From a virus, in the IMG/VR virus record IMGVR_UViG_3300029999_000001, positions 1-64,000 of that record: a DNA stretch of 64,000 bases. One strand, given 5' to 3'. Shown here one piece after another: positions 6,792 through 58,547 of the stretch (position 1 is the stretch's first letter; every line of letters starts with the position of its first letter). The notes beneath the pieces were generated by a model. The model was not told the origin of the DNA, did no database searches, and saw only the letters and a program-made list of their open reading frames with translations. The translations under genes and the position numbers were made by a program.

Positions 6792-8324
6792 GTGGCGGTG
6801 ACGTGGCTTGAGGCTGCCGCGGCAGAGTTCGAGCCCCCGCCAGATGACGTGTTCGAGAAGCTGGGCTTTACTCCCAACCCTGGCCCGCAGACCCGGTTCC
6901 TGTCGCTGCCGGACGAGAACATCGATGTCCTCTACGGCGGCGCGGCCGGTGGGTCGAAGAGCACGAGCCTTCTCCTGTACGCGCTGCGCGCCTGTGCCCG
7001 GTTCCCGGGCCTGCAGGCGTTCTGGTTCCGGCGCTCCTTCCCTGAGCTGCGGCAGTCGGTGCTGCGGCTGCTGGCCCGCTACCAGCACGCCCGCGCGCTC
7101 GGGGCCCGCTGGAACGAAGGCAACTTTGAGCTCCGGTTCTCCAACGGGTCGATCCTGACGTTCAGCCACGCCAAGAACATGATCGAAGCGTCCGCGTTCC
7201 TGTCAGCGGAGATCAATCTCCTGCTGATCGATGAGCGGACCACGATCCCGCCCGGTGTCGTGGACATGCTGTACAGCCGTGTCCGGTCCGGCGCGGCGGG
7301 GGTGCCGTGCCTGGGGATCCGCTCCGCGACGAACCCCGGGAACATCGGCCACGGCCGGGTCAAGGCCGAGTACGTGAAGGCCACCGAGCACGGCGCACGT
7401 GAGGTCATCGACCGGTACAAGCGGCGCCGCCAGTTCATTCAGGCCCGCGTCACGGACACGCCCCAGCTGGGCGAGGAGTACCGGCTGAACCTCGCGGGTC
7501 TTGATGAGAAGCTCCGCAAGGCCATGGAGGAAGGCGACTGGGAAACCTTCGAAGGCCAGGTCTTCCCCGAGTTGTCCTGGGACCGGCACGTGGTGCAGCC
7601 GATCGAGCTGCCTGCCTCCTGGCGCCGCTATGTGGGTGTGGACTGGGGCTACACGGCCCCGTGGGCGACCGGATGGTTCGCGCTGGACGAGGATGGCCGG
7701 GTCTGGATCTACCGGGAGATTTACGAAACCCAGGTCGGTGAGGCTGATCAGGCGAAGCGTATCCTCGCGGCCGAGGACGACGGGGAGCAGATCAGCGTCC
7801 GCTATGCGGATGACGCGATGTGGGCGACCCGCGGGGACGCGAAGCCGATCGCTGACGTGTATGCGGAGAACGGCTGCGCCCTCACCCCCGCAGGGAAGGG
7901 CCCCGGGTCGCGGGTGGCCGGCTGGCAGCGTCTGCACAGCTACCTGAAGGACGCGCCGGCGTGCCCGCATCACCGGGCGCTCGGCTGGGATATGTGCCCG
8001 AAACTGCACGTCTTCTCAACCTGCCCGAAGTGGTTCGATGAACTGTCCGAGCTGCCGCACGCGACCACAGGCGACCCTGAGGACTCCGATCCGAAGGCCC
8101 CCGACCACCTCGCGGACCTGACCCGGTACGTGCTGCTGAATCTCGACGGCGGCCCGGCGTTCCCCATCTTCGGTGACGACAAGCCCAGCCCCATCGCCGA
8201 GTTCGCTGAGCCCCTGCAGCCCCTGCACCAGTTCGCGTACCGGCCGATGGCTGATGAGCCCTCATGGTTCACCGACGACGAGGACACCGCCCGGCGGACC
8301 GTAAGGGTCGTGGATCCTGGATGA
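6792..8324 (+). CDS. terminase large subunit (packaging ATPase/nuclease)
   Basis: 510 aa, normal for the family. Visible are the Walker A GGAAGGSKS (49-57), Walker B LLLIDE (143-148), the SATNPG coupling motif (178-183) and the RNase H-like nuclease start VGVDWG with Asp about 284. It would power DNA translocation into the prohead and cut the concatemer, acting at the portal. Gap of 13 bases from the small subunit and 12 from the portal gene. Confidence 0.93.
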   Translation: MAVTWLEAAAAEFEPPPDDVFEKLGFTPNPGPQTRFLSLPDENIDVLYGGAAGGSKSTSLLLYALRACARFPGLQAFWFRRSFPELRQSVLRLLARYQHARALGARWNEGNFELRFSNGSILTFSHAKNMIEASAFLSAEINLLLIDERTTIPPGVVDMLYSRVRSGAAGVPCLGIRSATNPGNIGHGRVKAEYVKATEHGAREVIDRYKRRRQFIQARVTDTPQLGEEYRLNLAGLDEKLRKAMEEGDWETFEGQVFPELSWDRHVVQPIELPASWRRYVGVDWGYTAPWATGWFALDEDGRVWIYREIYETQVGEADQAKRILAAEDDGEQISVRYADDAMWATRGDAKPIADVYAENGCALTPAGKGPGSRVAGWQRLHSYLKDAPACPHHRALGWDMCPKLHVFSTCPKWFDELSELPHATTGDPEDSDPKAPDHLADLTRYVLLNLDGGPAFPIFGDDKPSPIAEFAEPLQPLHQFAYRPMADEPSWFTDDEDTARRTVRVVDPG

Positions 8325-8336
8325 CGGGGAGGTCTC

Positions 8337-10259
8337 GTGGCCTTCCGTGACTGGTTCCGGCGTGGCGGCGGCGAGATCGAAGAGGCGGCCACCAAGGCGC
8401 TGACCCCGGGCCAGGTTCCGGAGCGCGCCGGGTATTCATACGGCATCCCACGTGGCGGCCTCAACGAGGTCAACTCCAGCATGGGCGGGGCGACCGGAAC
8501 CGACCGCCGCTCCCAGCTCGAACAGCTCTACGAGTCGTACCTGTCCTGCCCGTGGGCGTGGGCCTGTGTGAACGCCATCGCCCGCACCATCACCGCCGGC
8601 GGCCTGGTGATGGACTGGAACTCCGACACCGGGGAAGGCGACGAGAAACCCCCGGACAAGCCGGAGAACGTCCTCGCGCTCGAGCGGCTGATCTCCTGGT
8701 GCAACGCCCGGCAGAACATCCGGCAGCTGATGCGGAACGTCGTCATCGACATGCTCGTCTTCGGTGATGCGTTCATCGAGGTGACCTGGTGGGGTGAGCT
8801 CCCGGTCGCCTTGTACAACCTGGATAACCCGACCACAACCCCGCTGGCTGATGAGCACGGCAACATCACCGGGTACGTGCAGGTCACCGAATCCGGGCAG
8901 CGCGCCGAGTTCGAGCCCCGCGACGTCATCCACCTCTCCCTGGATGCGCCCCGCTCCGGGGTGTTCGGGGTGTCCCCGACGCAGGCGGCGAGCCTGCCGA
9001 TCACCGCATGGCTGTTCGCCGCGGCGTGCGGGAAGGAAATGGCCCGCAAAGGCCTCCCGCCGAACGTGCACGTCGACTTCCCGGCGGGGATGCAGCCGGG
9101 TGAGATGAACCGGTGGCGGGCCCAGTACCAGGCGCAGAACGTCGGCCCCCGCAACATTGGTGTCCCGGTGATGACCAAGGGCGGCGCCCGCATCGCCGAA
9201 CTGCAGGCGGGGAAACTGCCGGACGTCCTGGCGTTTCTGGACCAGAAGCGCGACGAGATAATAGCCACCTATGGCGTCCCCCCGTCGAAGGCGTCGATCA
9301 TCGAGTCCGGGAACCTGGGTGGCGGCACAGGTGAAGAGCAGGACATTTCGTACAAAGTCGACCTCTGCGCCCCGATCGGTGAGCTGATCCTGGAAGCGTT
9401 CAACTTCTCGGTCAGCAGCCAGGGTTTCGGGATCGAGAACTGGCGAGCGAAGTTCCGCGAGGTCGACTACCGGGCCTCAACGGTGGTTGAGACCATCCGG
9501 GACATGCGGCTCCGCAATGGCGCCTGGGTGCTGAACCGGTACAAGGCGGAGATCGGCGAGCCCTCGGTCGACGGGGGCGACGACGCCGTGCTGGTCGACC
9601 GGCAGAACCTCGTTCTCTGGTCGGACATGTCCGCGATGAGCAAGGCGATGATCGCCAGCAAGGGCGCCCCGGCTGTCGCGGCCGGGGAGACACCACCGGG
9701 CGGTGAGCCGATGGCCCCGGGCGCCCCGGATGCACCCGGCGGGCAGGACGGCGAGGACGGCAAGCCGCAGGAGTCGCTGCTGGCCACGCAGATCGCCCGC
9801 TACCGGGCCCGTGTCGCCGAGGCCCTGGCCGTCACGCCCATCACCGAAGCCTCGGGCGGCACGGCAGCCGATGTCTATGACCAGCTCAGCGTTAATTTCC
9901 CCGCGTCGGCTATCGCCTGGGTGAAACCGGCGAAGTGGTCCGGCCCCCGGAAGGTGCTGGTCAAGGACGTCGACACGTCCGGCCGGGACAGCTGGGACGC
10001 CTCCCACCAGCCCGGCGAAGTCGCGGTGTTCACCAGCAAGCTCCGCAAACGGCAGCGCAAGGACCGGGAACTGAAACCGGTCGTGCTGGTGAAGCGGCCC
10101 GGTGCCGGGAAGCTCCTGATCGCGGACGGGCATCACCGGTTCCTCGCCTATGAGAAGGACGGGCAGGCGTACGTATGGGCGTACATCGGCACGGTGGGCA
10201 GCGAGCACGGGAAATGGGACGAGCTGGCCCTGTCGCAGAAGCGGGACAAGGCGGCATGA
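8337..10259 (+). CDS. portal protein with C-terminal ParB-like domain
   Basis: Residues 1 to about 430 fit a phage portal: SCPWAWACVNAIARTI near the N-terminus, DMLVFGDAFIEV, and GVPPSKASI in the stem region. After a proline/glycine linker (about 440-490) comes a separate domain ending LLIADGHHRFLAYEK (about 594-608), the signature of ParB/sulfiredoxin-like nucleotide-binding or nuclease domains. Total 640 aa, longer than simple portals. The ParB-like part may act on DNA ends or on assembly, or may be a fused cargo enzyme. The next gene overlaps its stop. Confidence 0.88.
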   Translation: MAFRDWFRRGGGEIEEAATKALTPGQVPERAGYSYGIPRGGLNEVNSSMGGATGTDRRSQLEQLYESYLSCPWAWACVNAIARTITAGGLVMDWNSDTGEGDEKPPDKPENVLALERLISWCNARQNIRQLMRNVVIDMLVFGDAFIEVTWWGELPVALYNLDNPTTTPLADEHGNITGYVQVTESGQRAEFEPRDVIHLSLDAPRSGVFGVSPTQAASLPITAWLFAAACGKEMARKGLPPNVHVDFPAGMQPGEMNRWRAQYQAQNVGPRNIGVPVMTKGGARIAELQAGKLPDVLAFLDQKRDEIIATYGVPPSKASIIESGNLGGGTGEEQDISYKVDLCAPIGELILEAFNFSVSSQGFGIENWRAKFREVDYRASTVVETIRDMRLRNGAWVLNRYKAEIGEPSVDGGDDAVLVDRQNLVLWSDMSAMSKAMIASKGAPAVAAGETPPGGEPMAPGAPDAPGGQDGEDGKPQESLLATQIARYRARVAEALAVTPITEASGGTAADVYDQLSVNFPASAIAWVKPAKWSGPRKVLVKDVDTSGRDSWDASHQPGEVAVFTSKLRKRQRKDRELKPVVLVKRPGAGKLLIADGHHRFLAYEKDGQAYVWAYIGTVGSEHGKWDELALSQKRDKAA

Positions 10260-10555
10260 CTGAGCACCAGAGGTCGCGCCTGATGCCCGAGGTTGGCCTC
10301 CCTCCCGGCTTCGTCCCCCCATCGGCTGCGCTGGCACCGCCAGGGGCAGCCCGCCGCGACCCGGCTGCCCTTCTCGCCGCTGTCGCCGAGGCCCTGAACG
10401 CTGCGGAACGGGCCGGCCTGATCATCGCCAGCCTGGACCATGGGGCGATCAAAACCCGCGCTGGCTATGTCGTCCCGTTCGGCACAGCCCAGCTCGGCTG
10501 CCGGTGGGTGGCCCGCTCCCGCATCCCCTACGACCCGGAAGGCGGCGAGGGGTGA
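10256..10555 (+). CDS. hypothetical protein, 99 aa
   Basis: ATGA overlap with the portal gene. Proline-rich N-terminus, then a helical segment and GYVVPFGTAQLGCRW. No family recognised; likely co-translated with the portal. Confidence 0.55.
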   Translation: MTEHQRSRLMPEVGLPPGFVPPSAALAPPGAARRDPAALLAAVAEALNAAERAGLIIASLDHGAIKTRAGYVVPFGTAQLGCRWVARSRIPYDPEGGEG

Positions 10556-10562
10556 CGGCGGT

Positions 10563-11009
10563 TCAGCCGCCGAGTACGCCTGCCTTCACTGCTGCCTCAC
10601 GGTCCACGGGTGGCGCCCGCACGTAAACCTCCAGGATCACGACGGCCATCTGCCAGTCAGCCGACTCGGGCACCTCGTGCACATTCTCCGGGTCAAGGAT
10701 TCCGCCCGTCACATAGCGGACTGTCTCATGCGGCAGTGTGACCGGCACGAATCCCTGACGGGTGACCAGTTCAAGCAAGTCGTTGCGCATGCGCTGCCGC
10801 AGGTACTCGCGGAAGCGGTCCGCCTCCCATTGCTCCCGGGGAACGGCCTGCCCGACGTAGGTGATCTGGTCCCAGTAGGAGTTCGCCGCGTCGGCCAGCG
10901 CCCGCGCCTGGCTGTCGCTCATGTGGACGGTAACTCTCCAGTCCCGTGCGGCGTTCATGACTGCCTCGGCTGCGCTCCGGACATTCCGCCTGTCGTTGAG
11001 CATGGTCAC
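10563..11009 (-). CDS. minus-strand hypothetical protein, 148 aa
   Basis: Convergent to the portal operon, ending 8 bases from it. Start GTG 11009 or ATG 11003. The product has balanced composition and helices (SDSQARALADAANSYWDQ, WEADRFREYLRQRMRND), unlike the overlapping plus frame. No domain recognised. It is one of several opposite-strand insertions in the late region. Confidence 0.55.
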   Translation of the reverse strand: MTMLNDRRNVRSAAEAVMNAARDWRVTVHMSDSQARALADAANSYWDQITYVGQAVPREQWEADRFREYLRQRMRNDLLELVTRQGFVPVTLPHETVRYVTGGILDPENVHEVPESADWQMAVVILEVYVRAPPVDREAAVKAGVLGG

Positions 11010-11043
11010 ACCATAGAGCGGCAGCGAAGGGCGGTGAGCGCCA

Positions 11044-11262
11044 GTGAGCGGTGATGTCCTACGCGATTACATCGCGATCCGTGACGCCGATGACCCGGAC
11101 CTAGCTCGCGCGCTGATCGAGAACCGGCGGCTGAGGGCGGAGAACAGCGCACAGGGCACGCAGGTCCGCCAGCTGACGGCACAGAACCGCGCTCAGGCCG
11201 CAGAGATCAGGGCGCAGGCCAACGAGATCGGGCGGTTGCGGGGAGCGGGCGGCAATGCCTGA
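11044..11262 (+). CDS. coiled-coil protein, 72 aa
   Basis: GTG start. From residue 25 on, the sequence is heptad-like with repeated glutamine/alanine/arginine units (RQLTAQNRAQAAEIRAQANE), a typical coiled coil. First of a set of small overlapping genes. Confidence 0.6.
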   Translation: MSGDVLRDYIAIRDADDPDLARALIENRRLRAENSAQGTQVRQLTAQNRAQAAEIRAQANEIGRLRGAGGNA

Positions 11263-11383
11263 CGAGCCGCACCTGGACGGCGACACGGACGCGCCTGTCG
11301 TCGCGCTTGAGCCCGACACCCTGCCGAACCGGCCGCTGACGGCCGAGGAGGCCTCGCCCTTCCTCGAAAAGGAGATCGGATAG
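11255..11383 (+). CDS. hypothetical acidic protein, 42 aa
   Basis: ATG overlaps the end of the coiled-coil gene; its stop shares a base with the next GTG. Acidic and probably unstructured (EPHLDGDTDAP). Short but flanked by overlaps that support translation. Confidence 0.5.
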   Translation: MPDEPHLDGDTDAPVVALEPDTLPNRPLTAEEASPFLEKEIG

Positions 11384-11553
11384 TGGCCGAGATGGCCCCC
11401 GTCGTTGTGCCCATTGAAGCCGACCCCGGCAAGCTCATCCAGGTCGCCCGCATCCTCCAGAAGCATTTCGGGGCGCTGGCCGATGACCTTGAGGGCCTCC
11501 GCAGTGGCGAGCCTGCCGAGCCGCAGGCCGAGATCAGGGAGAGCGTGCTGTGA
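11383..11553 (+). CDS. hypothetical protein, 56 aa
   Basis: GTG sharing the last base of the preceding TAG. Contains a helix (LIQVARILQKHFGALADDLE) and an acidic tail. Its stop overlaps the next GTG. Function unknown. Confidence 0.5.
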   Translation: MAEMAPVVVPIEADPGKLIQVARILQKHFGALADDLEGLRSGEPAEPQAEIRESVL

Positions 11554-11849
11554 AGCCAAGCGTTGGGTGCGGCGTCCACTACGTTAGCTACGGGACACCC
11601 GCAGGCGAGTACAAGAGCGAGTGCCGCGCCGCTGTGGTCACGGAGGTTGGTGCGGTGTGGGTACCGGCCGGCGAGGAGGTCCCGCCGGGGACGCCCGTCA
11701 GCCTCGCCGTGCTGAATCCGGAGGGGATGTTCTTCAACCGAGGCGTCATGCAGCATGACGGCGACGTTGGCCACGACCACGCGGGAGACGAGATTCCGGC
11801 CAGGTCATACCCGGGTGGCACCTGGCATTGGCCGGAACGGGTGGAGTAG
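11550..11849 (+). CDS. conserved actinophage-type protein, 99 aa
   Basis: GTGA overlap start. The VHYVSYGTPAGEY ... LNPEGMFFN ... GGTWHWPE pattern is familiar from hypothetical proteins in the portal-to-capsid interval of actinophages. It looks like a small beta protein. Function not established. Confidence 0.65.
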   Translation: MKPSVGCGVHYVSYGTPAGEYKSECRAAVVTEVGAVWVPAGEEVPPGTPVSLAVLNPEGMFFNRGVMQHDGDVGHDHAGDEIPARSYPGGTWHWPERVE

Positions 11850-11950
11850 TGAAGCACTGCCCGGTGACTGGTGAACTGGTCGCCACCTGCGGCTGCGGGG
11901 CCTGCGACGAAGACGACCAGGACGGGCCCGAGCTGGACGAGGACCGCTGA
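11849..11950 (+). CDS. small cysteine-rich acidic protein, 33 aa
   Basis: GTG overlaps the previous stop and the stop overlaps the next ATG. Four cysteines (HCPVTGELVATCGCGAC) precede an acidic tail. Possibly a metal-binding micropeptide. Confidence 0.45.
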   Translation: MKHCPVTGELVATCGCGACDEDDQDGPELDEDR

Positions 11951-12177
11951 TGCTCGCCAAGATCATTGCCCTGGTCGCTCACGAGATCGTGACCGAGTAC
12001 CGGAAGCTCGACGCCCCGCCTGCTGTACCCGCCGAGCCGCCGGCAGCACCGCAGGCCGATGAGATGCCCCGCTACGACACGTCATCAACGCTCAGCGCAT
12101 CCACCGAGCGTGCCGGGGCCTGGGACCACGACACCAAGCCGCCAGTGCGCGCGTTCGGGTTCGGGAAGGCAGACTAG
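11950..12177 (+). CDS. hypothetical protein, 75 aa
   Basis: ATGA overlap. A helical N-terminus (MLAKIIALVAHEIVTEYRK) is followed by a proline/alanine-rich linker. It might peripherally attach to membranes, but no family is recognised. Confidence 0.5.
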   Translation: MLAKIIALVAHEIVTEYRKLDAPPAVPAEPPAAPQADEMPRYDTSSTLSASTERAGAWDHDTKPPVRAFGFGKAD

Positions 12178-12186
12178 GCTCGGGTC

Positions 12187-12600
12187 ATGAGTCATGCTGG
12201 GCAGATCATCGAGGACTACTTCCAGCGCAAGGGCCAGCCGCGCGACTCGGCGCTGGACGCGGCCTACCAGTTCGAGATGACCATGCTGCGGGACATGCTC
12301 TCACGGCTGGAAGTCATCCTTGACGACGAGGGCGTCGGCCCGGATACCCGCGAGCGGGTGATCCGCTGCATGCTGTACGGCTCCCCGTCACCCGCCGCGG
12401 CCGAAATGAGGATGCGGCAGGAGCAGGAGATGGTGGATCTGCTCAACCGCACGTCGCTGACAGTCCACGTTGACGGCATCCATGACGGGGAGTTCGGCCA
12501 GCTTCTGGCCGAGACGAAGCGCGCAAGGCGCAGCGCGAAGCCTGCCGGTCTCAGGCCAGGTCCGATCGCCAGCATGTTCTTGCCGGATGGCGGCAAGTGA
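12187..12600 (+). CDS. hypothetical helical protein, 137 aa
   Basis: ATG start. Mainly helical, with charged segments (AAEMRMRQEQEMVDLLNRTS) and a basic C-terminal part. The next gene overlaps its stop by GTGA. Unrecognised. Confidence 0.55.
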   Translation: MSHAGQIIEDYFQRKGQPRDSALDAAYQFEMTMLRDMLSRLEVILDDEGVGPDTRERVIRCMLYGSPSPAAAEMRMRQEQEMVDLLNRTSLTVHVDGIHDGEFGQLLAETKRARRSAKPAGLRPGPIASMFLPDGGK

Positions 12601-12851
12601 GCTATCCCTACGACCCCGGGCCCGCCTGTCATCCGTCCGGCGAACCGTTCAGGAACATCTTCCCGCGGCGTCCCAATTGCCGGTGCTCGCTGACACCAGC
12701 AGACGAACCTGCCGACGCGCTCTACGCCATCCTCCTGTGCGGATGCAGGATCCGCATCAGTGCCGAGATAGCGAACGAGCCGGTACTGCGCTGCCTCTAT
12801 CGTCATGGCGGCATAGCTGTCCCGTTCGTAGTGGAGACCGAACCGCAGTAG
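12597..12851 (+). CDS. cysteine-containing hypothetical protein, 84 aa
   Basis: GTG overlap start. Four to six cysteines (NCRCS, LLCGCRI, RCLYRHG) suggest a metal-binding or disulfide-bearing fold. Function unknown. Confidence 0.5.
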   Translation: MSYPYDPGPACHPSGEPFRNIFPRRPNCRCSLTPADEPADALYAILLCGCRIRISAEIANEPVLRCLYRHGGIAVPFVVETEPQ

Positions 12852-12876
12852 CCGCGCTGGCAGCGCCGTGATCGCT

Positions 12877-13119
12877 TTAAGCGCGCTGGATCTCCGGCAG
12901 GTACCTGAGCGTCTCCCGGTCGAAGATCCGCATCGTCCCCCGTGTGATCCCGAGTGACGTCTTCACAGGCGCCCCGGCGAAGTTGGCTGGCTGGCCGATC
13001 TCCGCCCAGTCCGCCGGATGCAGGAACACTTCCGGGTCAGGCGGGTAGTACCGCGTCCAGACTTCTTCCCAGGTGAAGTTCATCGTCCGCCACAGCGGGT
13101 GGCTCGTGTCGGGCACCAT
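12877..13119 (-). CDS. minus-strand hypothetical protein, 80 aa
   Basis: ATG at 13119 preferred over upstream in-frame starts. Aromatic-rich (LWRTMNFTWEEVWTRYYPPD) with a basic C-terminus. Protein-like composition, convergent to the 12597-12851 gene. No family recognised. Confidence 0.5.
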   Translation of the reverse strand: MVPDTSHPLWRTMNFTWEEVWTRYYPPDPEVFLHPADWAEIGQPANFAGAPVKTSLGITRGTMRIFDRETLRYLPEIQRA

Positions 13120-13145
13120 ACGCTCAGGATGCCAGCGGAGGGCAG

Positions 13146-13433
13146 GTGAGCGTGACCCCGTGCCCGTCGCTCCCAACGGCCTATTGCGCGCCCGGTCAGC
13201 GGGTCTACGCCGGGATCATCCTCGCGCTCAAAGGCGAGCAGGTCGCAGACATCGTGGAGCATCCGTGGCTGGACGGCCGGACGGATGTCCTAATCGTCAA
13301 TCCGGCCGTGTTTGACCTGCCCAAATTCGAGCCGGGCGACTTCCGGGTGACCGAGGGCAGGTGGCCGTGGCCTCGCCCCCTCACCTGTTCTGCGACATCG
13401 ACGGCGTGCTGGCCTTCCAGCCCGAGGGCCTGA
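13146..13433 (+). CDS. hypothetical protein, 95 aa
   Basis: GTG start 3 bases after AGGGCAG. Residues 1-72 look like a beta-rich fold (VYAGIILALKGEQVADIVE). The last 24 codons overlap the HAD gene and have shadow-like composition. So the C-terminus may be an extension, or the true length shorter. Confidence 0.5.
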   Translation: MSVTPCPSLPTAYCAPGQRVYAGIILALKGEQVADIVEHPWLDGRTDVLIVNPAVFDLPKFEPGDFRVTEGRWPWPRPLTCSATSTACWPSSPRA

Positions 13434-13933
13434 TCCTCGCGATCAACGCCCGCTTCGGAACCTCCCATCTCGTCCCCGAGGCGACGACCTACCCGTTCTA
13501 TGCCACCCTCCCGCCACGGCAGCAGGTGTGGGCGCAGGCGAACCGGGCCCTGATCGCCGCGAACCTGGCCCCGGACACGATCGCTGTCCGCGCTATCCAG
13601 AAGGCGGCCAAGGCCGGTATCCCGGTCACCATCTGCACGGAACGCCCCCCGGTCATGGAAGCGCTGACCCGCGCTTGGCTGGCTTACTGGGGCGTTCCCG
13701 GCGCCGATGACGCGCAAGTGGCCGGGCCGGGCGGCAAAGAGGTGCTTCTGGAGCCGTACGGGGACACCGCGCCCGCCGTGCTGATTGATGACAAACCCGG
13801 CAACGAGGCGCTCGCCCGGCCCGGCGTGCAGGTGTGGGTGCCCTCCCGGCCATGGACGCCGGACGGTGACCCGCCAGCCGGTGTATGGCGGTTCACCGAC
13901 TGGCGGGACGTTAAGAAGAAGCTCAAGCTCTAG
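13361..13933 (+). CDS. HAD-superfamily phosphatase-like protein, 190 aa
   Basis: HAD motifs are visible: CDIDGVLAF with Asp 12 and Asp 14 (motif I), VTICTER near 89-95 (motif II), a lysine near 126 (motif III) and IDDKPGN at 142-148 (motif IV). Such enzymes remove phosphate from nucleotides, sugars or nucleic-acid ends using Mg2+. Cytosolic. Substrate not predictable. GTG 13361 or 13367 may be the start. Confidence 0.75.
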   Translation: MAVASPPHLFCDIDGVLAFQPEGLILAINARFGTSHLVPEATTYPFYATLPPRQQVWAQANRALIAANLAPDTIAVRAIQKAAKAGIPVTICTERPPVMEALTRAWLAYWGVPGADDAQVAGPGGKEVLLEPYGDTAPAVLIDDKPGNEALARPGVQVWVPSRPWTPDGDPPAGVWRFTDWRDVKKKLKL

Positions 13934-14528: not shown

Positions 14529-15662
14529 TTGCCGACCCTCCGGGATGCCGCCGCTGAAGCATTCGCTGCCGGCTGGGTCCTGTCGTTCGCCCCCCTCGCC
14601 AGCGACTACAAGCCCCGCGCCCTCGCCGCCATCGAACTCGCCTGCGAACGGCCCGACGACCCGGCCATCCTCGAAGCCACCCTCCAGCTAGGGCACCTCG
14701 AAGGCATCTGGAAGACGGTCTACGACCGCCGCGACCGCCTCGTGGCCACCCACCTGAAGCGGATCACCGCCGCATGGAACGCGATCGTCTCCGGCCTGGA
14801 CATCGGCCAGCTCGTCACCCGGTTCCGTTCCGCCGCCTACCTCACCGATGATGCGGCCGAATCGGAACTGGACGCGCTCACCGCGCACCTCGCCGAAGGC
14901 CGCCCGATCGGCGCCTGGCAGCCCCGCCATATCCCCGGTGCCGTCATGGCCGCGATCAGTGAGGACCTCACCAAGAACCTCACGATCACGGAGTCGGTGA
15001 ACCCGCACCGCCAGTTCTGGCGGGACACCGCCATCACGGCCGCCCTGGCCTGGCTGCGGCAGGTGTACACCGCAGACGGCTATAACGAGCTGGTCACCGC
15101 GGTTGAGGACGCGATCCGGGCCGGGATGGCTGAAGGGGAAGCCGGGGCCCTCGCTCTCGCCGCCAGCAAGCAGGGCAAGACGGGGTTTGACATCGCCGCC
15201 GCGTTCAAGGCCGCTTACGCGAAGGCCGGGAAAGGCTTCCGCATCCCCAGCCAGGCCCAGGATGTGGTGACCCGGATCATCGACGGGGCAGGCGGGGACG
15301 CAGGCCGGAAACTCGCCTCCCTCGCCGGAAACGGCGCGAGCAAGGCGGACATGGCGGATGCCGCCAGCGATGTCGTGAGCGGCCCGGATGTGCCGTCCGT
15401 GACTACCTGGACGGACTGGGGAATCTGGGCAGCGATGGGGGCGGGGGCACTAGACCTCTACGCATCCGCTGACGCCCAGACCGTCCAATGGATAACCGCC
15501 GGGGATGCGAACGTCTGCGAAAGCTGCCAGGACAACGAGGACAACAGCCCGTACCCGGTCGGCGAGGTGCCCTCGTATCCCGATCACCCTCGCTGCCGCT
15601 GTTATCTCGACTCGGACGATCCCGGGCTGTCGGCTCAGCTCATGGCCTATTACTTCGGGTGA
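14529..15662 (+). CDS. MuF-like head morphogenesis / minor head protein
   Basis: TTG start with GGAGG 6 bases upstream. The N-terminus is helical and residues about 325-360 carry CESCQDNED ... YPVGEVPSYPDHPRCRC, the cysteine/histidine C-terminal signature of Mu gpF/SPP1 gp7-type proteins. These are injected or minor head proteins that act at the portal during head assembly. 377 aa is within range. Confidence 0.82.
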   Translation: MPTLRDAAAEAFAAGWVLSFAPLASDYKPRALAAIELACERPDDPAILEATLQLGHLEGIWKTVYDRRDRLVATHLKRITAAWNAIVSGLDIGQLVTRFRSAAYLTDDAAESELDALTAHLAEGRPIGAWQPRHIPGAVMAAISEDLTKNLTITESVNPHRQFWRDTAITAALAWLRQVYTADGYNELVTAVEDAIRAGMAEGEAGALALAASKQGKTGFDIAAAFKAAYAKAGKGFRIPSQAQDVVTRIIDGAGGDAGRKLASLAGNGASKADMADAASDVVSGPDVPSVTTWTDWGIWAAMGAGALDLYASADAQTVQWITAGDANVCESCQDNEDNSPYPVGEVPSYPDHPRCRCYLDSDDPGLSAQLMAYYFG

Positions 15663-57162: not shown

Positions 57163-58547
57163 GCGAACCGGTCTACAAGCGCTGCAAATGCCGCGACGCT
57201 GACGGCAAGGACATCGGCGTGTCCTGCCCGAAGCTGAAACGGGCCGACGGGTCATGGAATCCGAAGCACGGGACGTGGTACTTCGCGCTCGAGCTGCCGC
57301 CCGGCCCCGGCGGCAAGCGGCGGCCGAGGCTGCGCCGCGGTGGGTACGAAACACGCGAGGCGGCGGCGGATGCCCGGGATCAGGCCAGGGCCACGCTCCG
57401 CAGGGGCGTTGACCCGTCCGTCAAGACGATGACCGGCAAGTACCTCACCACCTGGCTCGCTGGCCGCCGCGACCTCAAGCCGACCACCCGGCACAACTAC
57501 GAGGTCAGCATCAGCACCTACCTGGTCCCGCTGCTGGGGCACATTGAGCTGAGCAGGCTTCAGCCGGAGCACATCGCGGACGCCTTCGCCACGATCAGGG
57601 AATGGAACGACCTGCTTCTCTCGGGGCAGCCGGTCCGCAAGTACCAGCGGCACGTCGGGCCCGCAGCGATGCAGCGGATCCGCAACGTCCTTCAGTCCGC
57701 GCTGCGGGATGCGATCAAGGCACGGATGATCGAGTTCAACGCCGCGAAGCTCGTCAGCATGGACCCGGTAACGTCCCAGAAGCCGATGATGTGGACGGCT
57801 GAGCGGGCACGGAAGTTCTGGGCCGGCTACGAGGAAGCACTCGAAGCCTCTCCGCTGACCCGCGGGGACAGGGCTTTCCTGGTGTGGCGGTCCGTCGCGC
57901 TGCGGCCCTTCCCGGTGATGGTGTGGAATCTGAGCGACCTCGGGGCCTTCCTCGACTACGCCGCTGGGCATCGCCTCTCCCCCGTGTTCGAGCTTGCCGC
58001 CGGCACGGGGATGCGCCGCGGTGAGCTGTGCGGGCTGCGCTGGACGGATGTGGACCTGGATCAGAGCATCCTCTACATCACGCCGGGCGGGGTGCGTGTC
58101 CAGGCCGGATGGGAAGTCTTCGAAGGCGGCCCGAAGACAGAAGCGGGCGGCCGGGAGGTCCCGCTCATCGACCAGGACACCGGGACGCTCCGGGCGTGGA
58201 AGCGGCAGCAGAACCGGGAGCGGCTCTCCTGGGGCAGCGACTGGCAGGACAGCGGCCTTGTCTTCACCCATGAGGACGGGTCGGCATGGCACCCGGAGGC
58301 TGTGACTGATGCTTTCGAGCGGCTCGCGTTCGCCGCGCATCTCCCGCCGGTCCGGCTGCATGACATCCGGCACGCGCACATCTCCCAGTTGCTTGCCGCC
58401 GGGGTCGATGTCCGGATCGTTTCGGAGCGGGTCGGTCACTCCGGGAGCAAGATGACCCGCGACTACGCGGCGGTGGCGGCTGAGGTCTCCCGGCAGGCCG
58501 CCGCGACGATTGTCGGGATGATCCCGAGGAAAGCAGGTGGGCAATGA
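57159..58547 (+). CDS. int: tyrosine recombinase (phage integrase), 462 aa
   Basis: GTGA overlap. An N-terminal cysteine-bearing arm-binding part (YKRCKCRDADG ... CPKLKRADGSW), a core-binding domain, then the catalytic domain with Arg 286 (TGMRRGEL), Lys 326 (PKTEAGGR), His 401/Arg 404 (HDIRH), His 427 (VGHSG) and Tyr 436 (TRDYA). All catalytic residues are present. It would recombine attP at 58859-58909 with a host tRNA-Thr gene. Confidence 0.92.
   Translation: MSEPVYKRCKCRDADGKDIGVSCPKLKRADGSWNPKHGTWYFALELPPGPGGKRRPRLRRGGYETREAAADARDQARATLRRGVDPSVKTMTGKYLTTWLAGRRDLKPTTRHNYEVSISTYLVPLLGHIELSRLQPEHIADAFATIREWNDLLLSGQPVRKYQRHVGPAAMQRIRNVLQSALRDAIKARMIEFNAAKLVSMDPVTSQKPMMWTAERARKFWAGYEEALEASPLTRGDRAFLVWRSVALRPFPVMVWNLSDLGAFLDYAAGHRLSPVFELAAGTGMRRGELCGLRWTDVDLDQSILYITPGGVRVQAGWEVFEGGPKTEAGGREVPLIDQDTGTLRAWKRQQNRERLSWGSDWQDSGLVFTHEDGSAWHPEAVTDAFERLAFAAHLPPVRLHDIRHAHISQLLAAGVDVRIVSERVGHSGSKMTRDYAAVAAEVSRQAAATIVGMIPRKAGGQ

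What the first reader, a model, noticed from the sequence alone, without database searches (positions are those of the whole stretch)
8337..10259. Portal protein fused to a ParB-like domain
After a portal of normal size comes a linker and a domain with LLIADGHHRFLAYEK, the ParB/sulfiredoxin signature. Such a domain on the portal ring would put up to twelve copies at the DNA entry point.
Basis: partly seen in the sequence, partly recalled or inferred. Interest (0 to 1): 0.5.

Follow-up and report, generated by a model that had tools for sequence, protein, structure and literature searches.

The report
Phage portal carrying a ParB-fold module
An uncultivated, probably temperate phage has welded a ParB/sulfiredoxin-fold (nucleotide-binding type) domain onto the ring through which its DNA enters and leaves the head, and phages with unrelated rings have done the same, often with the same small gene nearby, which suggests an accessory tool built into the virus particle.

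Summary
The 640-aa product of 8337-10259 is an HK97-type portal (Pfam Phage_portal, E 2.8e-26), a linker, and a ~120-aa domain that models as a ParB/sulfiredoxin fold (VIA Z: sulfiredoxin 9.5, PadC 9.0, ParB 8.9, SerK 7.7). It belongs to a bounded family (47 distinct members; DGHH in 47 of 47, then R in 37, H in 10). 41 of 47 sit in portal polypeptides of several types whose cores mostly do not align by BLASTP. The domain is optional: of 80 portals with 58-100% identical cores, 25 carry it, 50 stop just before it, 5 are cut. A small unnamed gene (10256-10555, overlapping the portal stop) goes with it: 18 of 22 tailed loci, 0 of 49 tail-less; and 9 of 11 further contigs found through the small gene hold the domain. 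I read it as a head-borne accessory enzyme module with a partner, comparable to MuF toxins and polyvalent head proteins. A ParB-type CTP clamp is unlikely. Nucleotide binding, activity, location in the virion and the partner's role are inferred. The papers I searched, seen as listings or passages, showed no portal-ParB fusion.

The parts
8337..10259 (+). portal-ParB/Srx fusion gene, 640 aa, GTG start
8553..9434 (+). portal core, Pfam Phage_portal PF04860 match (aa 73-366)
   Evidence: E 2.8e-26; PHROG phrog_12 aa 1-481
9624..9797 (+). low-complexity Pro/Gly-rich linker (about aa 430-487; borders approximate)
   Evidence: sequence; low pLDDT in the full-length model, in which the whole portal part is low too
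9798..9827 (+). helix RYRARVAEAL; many tail-less relatives end shortly after the corresponding YRxRLREAL: the fusion junction
9864..10229 (+). ParB/sulfiredoxin-fold domain (about aa 510-631) with a family-specific N-terminal part (VYxQLxxxFPxxAIxWV...WxGP)
10119..10142 (+). IADGHHRF motif (putative phosphate-binding loop); DGHH in 47 of 47 family members
10256..10555 (+). small partner gene, 99 aa, ATG overlapping the portal stop (ATGA; assumed start, another ATG lies at 10283); no Pfam or PHROG match
13361..13933 (+). HAD-like gene (PHROG polynucleotide kinase/nucleotidase-like; only a weak Pfam match), in this set found beside ParB-tailed portals only (9 of 25 versus 0 of 50)
6792..8324 (+). 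terminase large subunit, directly upstream
   Evidence: (below cut-off)
14529..15662 (+). MuF-like head morphogenesis gene, about 4.2 kb downstream of the portal; within 343 nt of it in 26 of the 41 tail-less loci where it was found

Best explanation
The tail is an accessory, head-borne effector module: a small ParB/sulfiredoxin-fold, probably nucleotide-binding enzyme domain hung by a flexible linker on the C-terminus of the portal, so that about twelve copies would sit at the portal vertex, made together with a small partner protein from a coupled downstream gene. SHOWN: the fusion, the fold (by model), conservation of DGHH and purifying selection, that near relatives have the same portal without it, that several dissimilar portal families carry the same domain family, and that a small gene is linked to it in two of these carrier groups. 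INFERRED: it binds a nucleotide in the DGHH pocket and does SerK/Srx-like phosphotransfer or NTP hydrolysis rather than forming a CTP clamp; it lies inside the head; it acts on the DNA, nucleotides or host components at or after DNA ejection; the small protein inhibits (immunity-like) or assists it in the producing cell.
For: Fold. Family with a clear score gap (101-244 bits versus 42 or less; a later member, L300, scores 87); DGHH in 47 of 47. Optional on the same portal: 25 with, 50 without, 5 cut, of 80, at least 3 changes on the portal tree. Repeated use: portals of Phage_portal, Portal_Mu, Phage_portal_3, phrog_145 and phrog_2662 (some with MuF and NUDIX) types, whose cores mostly do not align by BLASTP at E 0.01 while the domains are 32-56% identical to the window's. 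Partner gene: 18 of 22 versus 0 of 49 (13 of 16 versus 0 of 31 clusters); of 22 contigs found with the small protein 20 hold the domain, 9 of the 11 not fetched before; a possible start within 20 nt of the carrier's stop in 13 of 26. Precedent: MuF toxins are followed by small ORFs (89.4% versus 25.5%; passages of PMC5576092); portals fused to PBECR and 2H domains, and ParB-fold DdrB in P1 heads (passages and section 15 of PMC5512222). Probably temperate: tyrosine integrase.
Against: No activity, ligand or virion data. Within the window's portal clade the tail is either short or ParB; no other added domain was seen (50 tails of 63-119 residues), unlike polymorphic toxins. No isolate phage matched the domain. 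10 of 47 have DGHHH instead of DGHHR, so the superfamily's pocket arginine is not universal. Portal rings are thought to stay in the virion (general knowledge), so delivery would need cleavage or ejection, for which there is no evidence. Linkage counts are not phylogenetically independent; the small gene is missing by HMM in 4 of 22 tailed loci and was not found beside the Portal_Mu, Portal_3, phrog_145 and solo members; L299 has it without the domain in the locus.
Confidence: 0.5

Rival explanations
1. Packaging or assembly factor: about twelve ParB-fold domains bind NTP and DNA at the portal and act as a gate, clamp or headful/retention sensor.
For: Fusion to the portal in 41 of 47 members and solo genes in a head module tie it to the head; purifying evolution; no other effector on the clade-A portal.
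Against: 50 of 80 close portal relatives do without it; no HTH or GERR-type motif in the window protein, no ParA found; the company of NUDIX and HAD-type genes is not what a clamp needs.
Confidence: 0.2
2. Nucleotide- or DNA-end-processing enzyme working during replication and assembly: the ParB-fold kinase-like domain, with the HAD phosphatase-like gene and NUDIX domains, manages phosphates or nucleotides at the packaging site.
For: SerK/SbnI-type DGHHR motif; HAD gene beside 5 of 7 tailed versus 0 of 22 tail-less portals with at least 6 kb downstream; portal-MuF-NUDIX-ParB fusions; weak ParB-like relatives fused to deoxyribonucleotidase-like HAD domains (L071, L075, L084).
Against: The HAD gene is absent from 2 of 6 tailed clusters and its family assignment is weak; the HAD link may be shared ancestry; no substrate known.
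Confidence: 0.2
3. A non-catalytic domain: a binding or structural decoration on the portal that has kept the fold but not the chemistry.
For: Arginine of the motif replaced by histidine in 10 of 47; no activity is known for any member.
Against: DGHH kept in 47 of 47 members across carriers, which a mere scaffold would not need.
Confidence: 0.1

Closest known systems
MuF polymorphic toxins of temperate phages (Jamet et al. 2017, PMC5576092; passages seen)
   Same: Head protein with an optional C-terminal domain and a small downstream ORF; packaging module; temperate phages.
   Different: Here the portal itself is the carrier (MuF is a separate gene in the window); one domain type; 'parb' has 0 occurrences in that paper's main text.
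Polyvalent proteins, including DdrB-like ParB domains and portal-PBECR / portal-2H fusions (Iyer et al. 2017, PMC5512222; passages and section 15 seen)
   Same: Effector-type domains fused to portal or MuF; a ParB/Srx-fold domain carried in phage heads (P1 DdrB).
   Different: Section 15 does not describe a ParB domain on a portal; the window's protein and its tail gave no ParB-type Pfam match at E<=0.1.
Free serine kinases SerK and SbnI
   Same: Best sequence-profile matches in the PDB through the DGHHR stretch (E 0.009-0.015); VIA Z 7.7 and 7.0.
   Different: The matched SerK and SbnI chains are 242-256 aa, the domain about 120; the best SerK alignment covers chain residues 13-90; no serine-related context looked for or seen.
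Sulfiredoxin / ParB N-domain (PadC, ParB, Noc, KorB)
   Same: Fold: VIA Z 9.5 (sulfiredoxin), 9.0 (PadC), 8.9 (ParB), 8.8 (Noc), 7.4 (KorB).
   Different: About 12-19% identity over the aligned part, nothing after the domain in the window, different motif, no ParA found.

Membership tests
HK97-type phage portal | Phage_portal domain above curated cut-off, next to the terminase | tested here: met
   92.9 bits, cut-off 39.1; TerL directly upstream
ParB/sulfiredoxin fold superfamily | Fold | tested here: met
   AF2 model, VIA Z up to 9.5, with known ParB/Srx-fold proteins in the first 31 rows; Foldseek prob 1.00 but best E only 2.1e-3
ParB CTPase clamp (ParABS) | GERR-type nucleotide motif (recalled) | tested here: not met
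   DGHH[RH] in 47 of 47
ParB CTPase clamp (ParABS) | HTH and C-terminal dimerisation domains after the N-domain | tested here: not met
   the window protein ends within about 10 residues of the domain; no such Pfam match
ParB CTPase clamp (ParABS) | ParA partner | tested here: inconclusive
   No AAA_31 match in the 100,323-base record, which may be incomplete; other ParA models not tried
Free serine kinase (SerK/SbnI) | DGHHR motif | tested here: met
   window aa 597-601
Free serine kinase (SerK/SbnI) | C-terminal part of the kinase and catalytic glutamate (E30 in SerK, from PDB entry titles) | tested here: inconclusive
   Domain is about 120 aa against about 240; some VIA rows reach chain residue 222; coordinates not available for residue mapping
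DdrB-like ParB of polyvalent proteins | Match to that domain family | tested here: inconclusive
   No ParB-type Pfam match at E<=0.1 for the window; absence of an HMM match is not proof
MuF toxin system | MuF domain in the same polypeptide | tested here: not met
   Separate MuF-like gene in the window; met in L300, L301, L303, L306
MuF toxin system | Small ORF downstream linked to the C-terminal domain | tested here: met
   18 of 22 versus 0 of 49
MuF toxin system | Toxicity and immunity | not testable with these tools
   needs an expression assay

The most novel reading that the evidence does not exclude
A portal-anchored effector cassette: a ParB/Srx-fold enzyme captured by at least four dissimilar portal types (and in portal-MuF-NUDIX-ParB giants), paired in two of these groups with a dedicated inhibitor or immunity protein, so that the DNA gate of the virion is itself an armed enzyme acting at the moment DNA leaves or enters.
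Probability: 0.35. Interest if true: 0.8.

Novelty: new variant of a known kind. Interest (0 to 1): 0.6.

Why it matters
Portal rings are usually discussed as conduits and motor adapters. A recurrent, optional enzyme-like domain on the portal, with a linked small gene and natural tail-less siblings, makes it testable whether phages arm the portal vertex. The family would probably be missed by a PF02195-based survey such as PMC12704722 (ParB_N gives no match to the window at E<=0.1, and only E 0.13 for L049); that paper's main text has 0 occurrences of 'portal' and of 'capsid'.

Tried and rejected
Ordinary portal crown: rejected, the tail models as ParB/Srx in isolation and also within the full-length run, although the portal part of that run is poor (mean pLDDT 43.2, 14 sequences) and says nothing about placement. 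Chance motif: rejected by the family. Assembly artefact of the fusion: rejected, the same architecture is in many contigs. Small ORF as a mere overlap with conserved portal DNA: checked by using only the part after the portal stop; it still separates the two classes. Isolate phages: six tblastn queries for the domain (window tail, L014, L044, L049, L042, L041) against 50,697 records at E<=0.01 gave none; the whole portal as query matched 10 records at E<=1e-5, all within residues 61-418, the portal core. Cellular genomes: one pattern-based scan gave one weak archaeal match (L030). Small-gene identity in Pfam or PHROGs: none reliable. The small protein's structure was not predicted (both jobs used).

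Limits and dropped rows. Near-identical domains were collapsed. The domain tree has 32 domains, before later ones were found. The portal tree leaves out 5 truncated loci and L217 (intein). One search kept the best 80 of 129 portal relatives. PHROG/Pfam typing of carriers used representatives: 20 ORFs, L014; L040 was typed by BLASTP, L305 and L058; the window group by a portal-core HMM. In one search the core of L039 was cut short by a slip in my script (first envelope row used). The 47 carriers: 25 Phage_portal type (24 by core HMM plus L012, a contig-cut portal C-terminus), 3 Phage_portal_3, 3 Portal_Mu, 2 phrog_145, 8 phrog_2662 type (L058 is contig-cut and placed by homology to L057), 5 not fused (L042, L048, L055, L056, L296), and L014 (adjacent, other frame). 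4 of 22 tailed loci lack the small gene by HMM (L196, L267, L281, L290; the first is nearly identical to L199, which is L267's contig). The 22 contigs include the sources of its query (6 sequences) and 3 copies of the window's virus; L301 and L302 are alike.

Full report
What is there. The ORF at 8337-10259 encodes 640 aa. Residues 73-366 match Pfam Phage_portal (92.9 bits, E 2.8e-26); residues 1-481 match PHROG portal phrog_12. TerL lies directly upstream (6792-8324). After a Pro/Gly-rich linker comes a helix RYRARVAEAL (aa 488-497) and then a domain with IADGHHRF at 595-602. The record is 100,323 bases long and has a tyrosine integrase domain at 57948-58481, so the phage is probably temperate.

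The fold. An 11-sequence alignment of the tail gave an AlphaFold2 model with pLDDT about 83-95 over residues 51-160 (mean 76.7). VIA-align matches: sulfiredoxin Z 9.5 (87 residues, 2.1 A), PadC 9.0, ParB 8.9, Noc 8.8, SerK 7.7, SbnI 7.0. The tool warns that best Z values of 7 to 8 are common without a clear relative; here the first 31 rows are all sulfiredoxin, ParB-type or serine-kinase chains of this superfamily (chains preselected by Foldseek). Foldseek alone was weaker (best E 2.1e-3; 0 of 89 matches at E<=0.001). By sequence the profile's only PDB matches are SerK (1vk1 and 5x0 entries) and SbnI at E 0.009-0.015, through the DGHHR stretch. Pfam ParB models do not reach the window's domain at E<=0.1. 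In the full-length run the portal part is unreliable, but the same domain folds with block pLDDT of about 73-90.

The family. Scans of IMG/VR with growing alignments found 70 loci in the widest one: 39 contigs with E<=4e-17 and 31 with E 7e-7 or worse that match only around the motif. A profile separates them (101-244 bits versus 42 or less; 14 of the strong members trained it). With later finds (lowest L300, 87 bits) there are 47 distinct domains; DGHH is in 47 of 47, followed by R in 37 and H in 10. Family-specific features are the N-terminal VYxQLxxxFPxxAIxWV and WxGP segments and a late Trp. Seven close pairs give omega 0.14-0.35 for the domain and 0.13-0.24 for the portal core.

Carriers. 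By PHROG and Pfam the domain sits behind Phage_portal (window group, L039, L054), Portal_Mu (L041, L046, L053), Phage_portal_3 (L044, L047; L040 by BLASTP), phrog_145 portals (L049, L052; L014 in another frame directly after one) and phrog_2662 portals (L057, L298, L300, L301, L303, L306; L305 and L058 by BLASTP). That is 41 of 47 in portal polypeptides, two of them (L012, L058) contig-cut pieces placed by homology. L300, L301, L303 and L306 are portal-MuF-NUDIX-ParB proteins with frames of 1225-1591 aa, some cut at the contig or locus start, and L298 is portal-ParB-NUDIX. Most of these cores do not align by BLASTP at E 0.01 (done before the giants were found). The solo gene of L042 lies between major capsid and tail-completion genes, and that of L055 next to a head-tail adaptor; L048 and L056 look alike but their neighbours were not scanned. 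L296 has the giant protein's ParB part as a separate ORF. In the domain tree members group largely by portal type: 8 groups need 7 changes, the minimum, so capture seems to have been rare and then stable.

A natural control. Scanning with the portal core only gave 80 loci (the best 80 of 129). 25 have the domain (one cut within it), 50 have a short tail of 63-119 residues, many ending near YRxRLREAL, and 5 are truncated. The label changes at least 3 times on the portal tree (74 rows; well-supported branches force 2). So these portals do without the domain, and the junction is just after that helix.

A linked small gene. The ORF 10256-10555 starts with an ATG that overlaps the portal stop (ATGA; another ATG lies 27 nt further). 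Its family (about 60-70 aa conserved) has no reliable Pfam or PHROG match. It is present in 18 of 22 tailed loci with at least 300 nt downstream and in 0 of 49 tail-less ones; after clustering at 95% portal identity 13 of 16 versus 0 of 31. It also follows the dissimilar L057 and L058 portals. A scan with the small protein found 22 contigs, 20 with the ParB domain in the same locus; 11 of the 22 had not been fetched before, and 9 of these 11 have the domain. L299 has the small gene without the domain, among ORFs that look like tail genes to the eye; L304 begins 2 kb before it. A possible start codon lies within 20 nt of the carrier's stop in 13 of 26 distinct loci (in L233 the conserved part begins only 167 nt later); in others the gene is up to 2.3 kb away. 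It was not detected beside Portal_Mu, Portal_3, phrog_145 or solo members. A HAD-like gene (window 13361-13933) is in 5 of 7 tailed and 0 of 22 tail-less loci with at least 6 kb downstream (4 of 6 versus 0 of 18 clusters). The p-values ignore shared ancestry.

Interpretation. An optional, repeatedly captured, selectively maintained domain on a head protein with a coupled small gene is the pattern described for MuF toxins (small ORF after 89.4% of toxin versus 25.5% of short MuF genes; passages of PMC5576092) and for polyvalent head proteins, where portals carry PBECR and 2H domains and P1 DdrB carries a ParB/Srx domain (passages and section 15 of PMC5512222). I therefore favour a head-borne accessory enzyme module with a partner protein (0.5). 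Against a toxin reading in the strict sense: no other effector was seen on this portal. A CTP clamp is disfavoured by the motif, the missing HTH and dimer domains and the absence of a detected ParA.

Novelty. Full-text searches for portal with ParB and fusion terms and for head-borne effectors showed no portal-ParB fusion in what I saw, which was listings plus passages or single sections of PMC5512222, PMC3482391, PMC12704722 and PMC5576092 (and passages of the SerK paper PMC5120207), not whole texts. The 2025 survey of the ParB fold (PMC12704722; outline, abstract and passages) stresses domain fusions in phages and diverse NTP binding, but has 0 occurrences of 'portal' or 'capsid' in its main text. 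The kind (effector-type domain on a head protein) is known; this combination of carrier, domain and small gene appears to be a new variant.

Noticed in passing
L007 3601-6552 (same contig: L026, L035, L097, L217, L284, L294): The portal-ParB gene of this relative contains an intein-like insert with a LAGLIDADG-type domain (983-984-aa frame; LAGLIDADG_3 E 1.4e-5, Hint_2 only E 0.097).
   Followed up: partly
L014 4316-6384: A phrog_145 portal is followed by the ParB domain in another frame with no ATG, GTG or TTG before the conserved region: a frameshift, programmed or a sequence error.
   Followed up: partly
L047 3523-6951; L298, L300, L301, L303, L306: NUDIX hydrolase domains in the same polypeptide as portal (in four of them MuF too) and ParB domain.
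   Followed up: partly
L071 5047-6600, L075 34-1452, L084 4906-6468, L059 4273-6408: More distant ParB-like domains fused to deoxyribonucleotidase-like HAD (first three) or cytidylyltransferase (L059) domains.
   Followed up: no
L042 3-1142: Alt-like ADP-ribosyltransferase match in the same head module as a solo ParB-family gene.
   Followed up: no
window 10563-13176: Reverse-strand ORFs between the small gene and the HAD gene; beyond copies of the same virus, three of the four tested have hits, in four tailed relatives in all (L023, L232, L234, L281; E 1e-15 to 1e-6) and in no tail-less one.
   Followed up: no
L296 3123-4502: Two reverse-strand ORFs lie where the giant portal-MuF-NUDIX-ParB protein of relatives is split into two ORFs.
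   Followed up: no
L234 11892-12677: An extra ORF, HNH-like to the eye, between the portal-ParB gene and the small gene.
   Followed up: no
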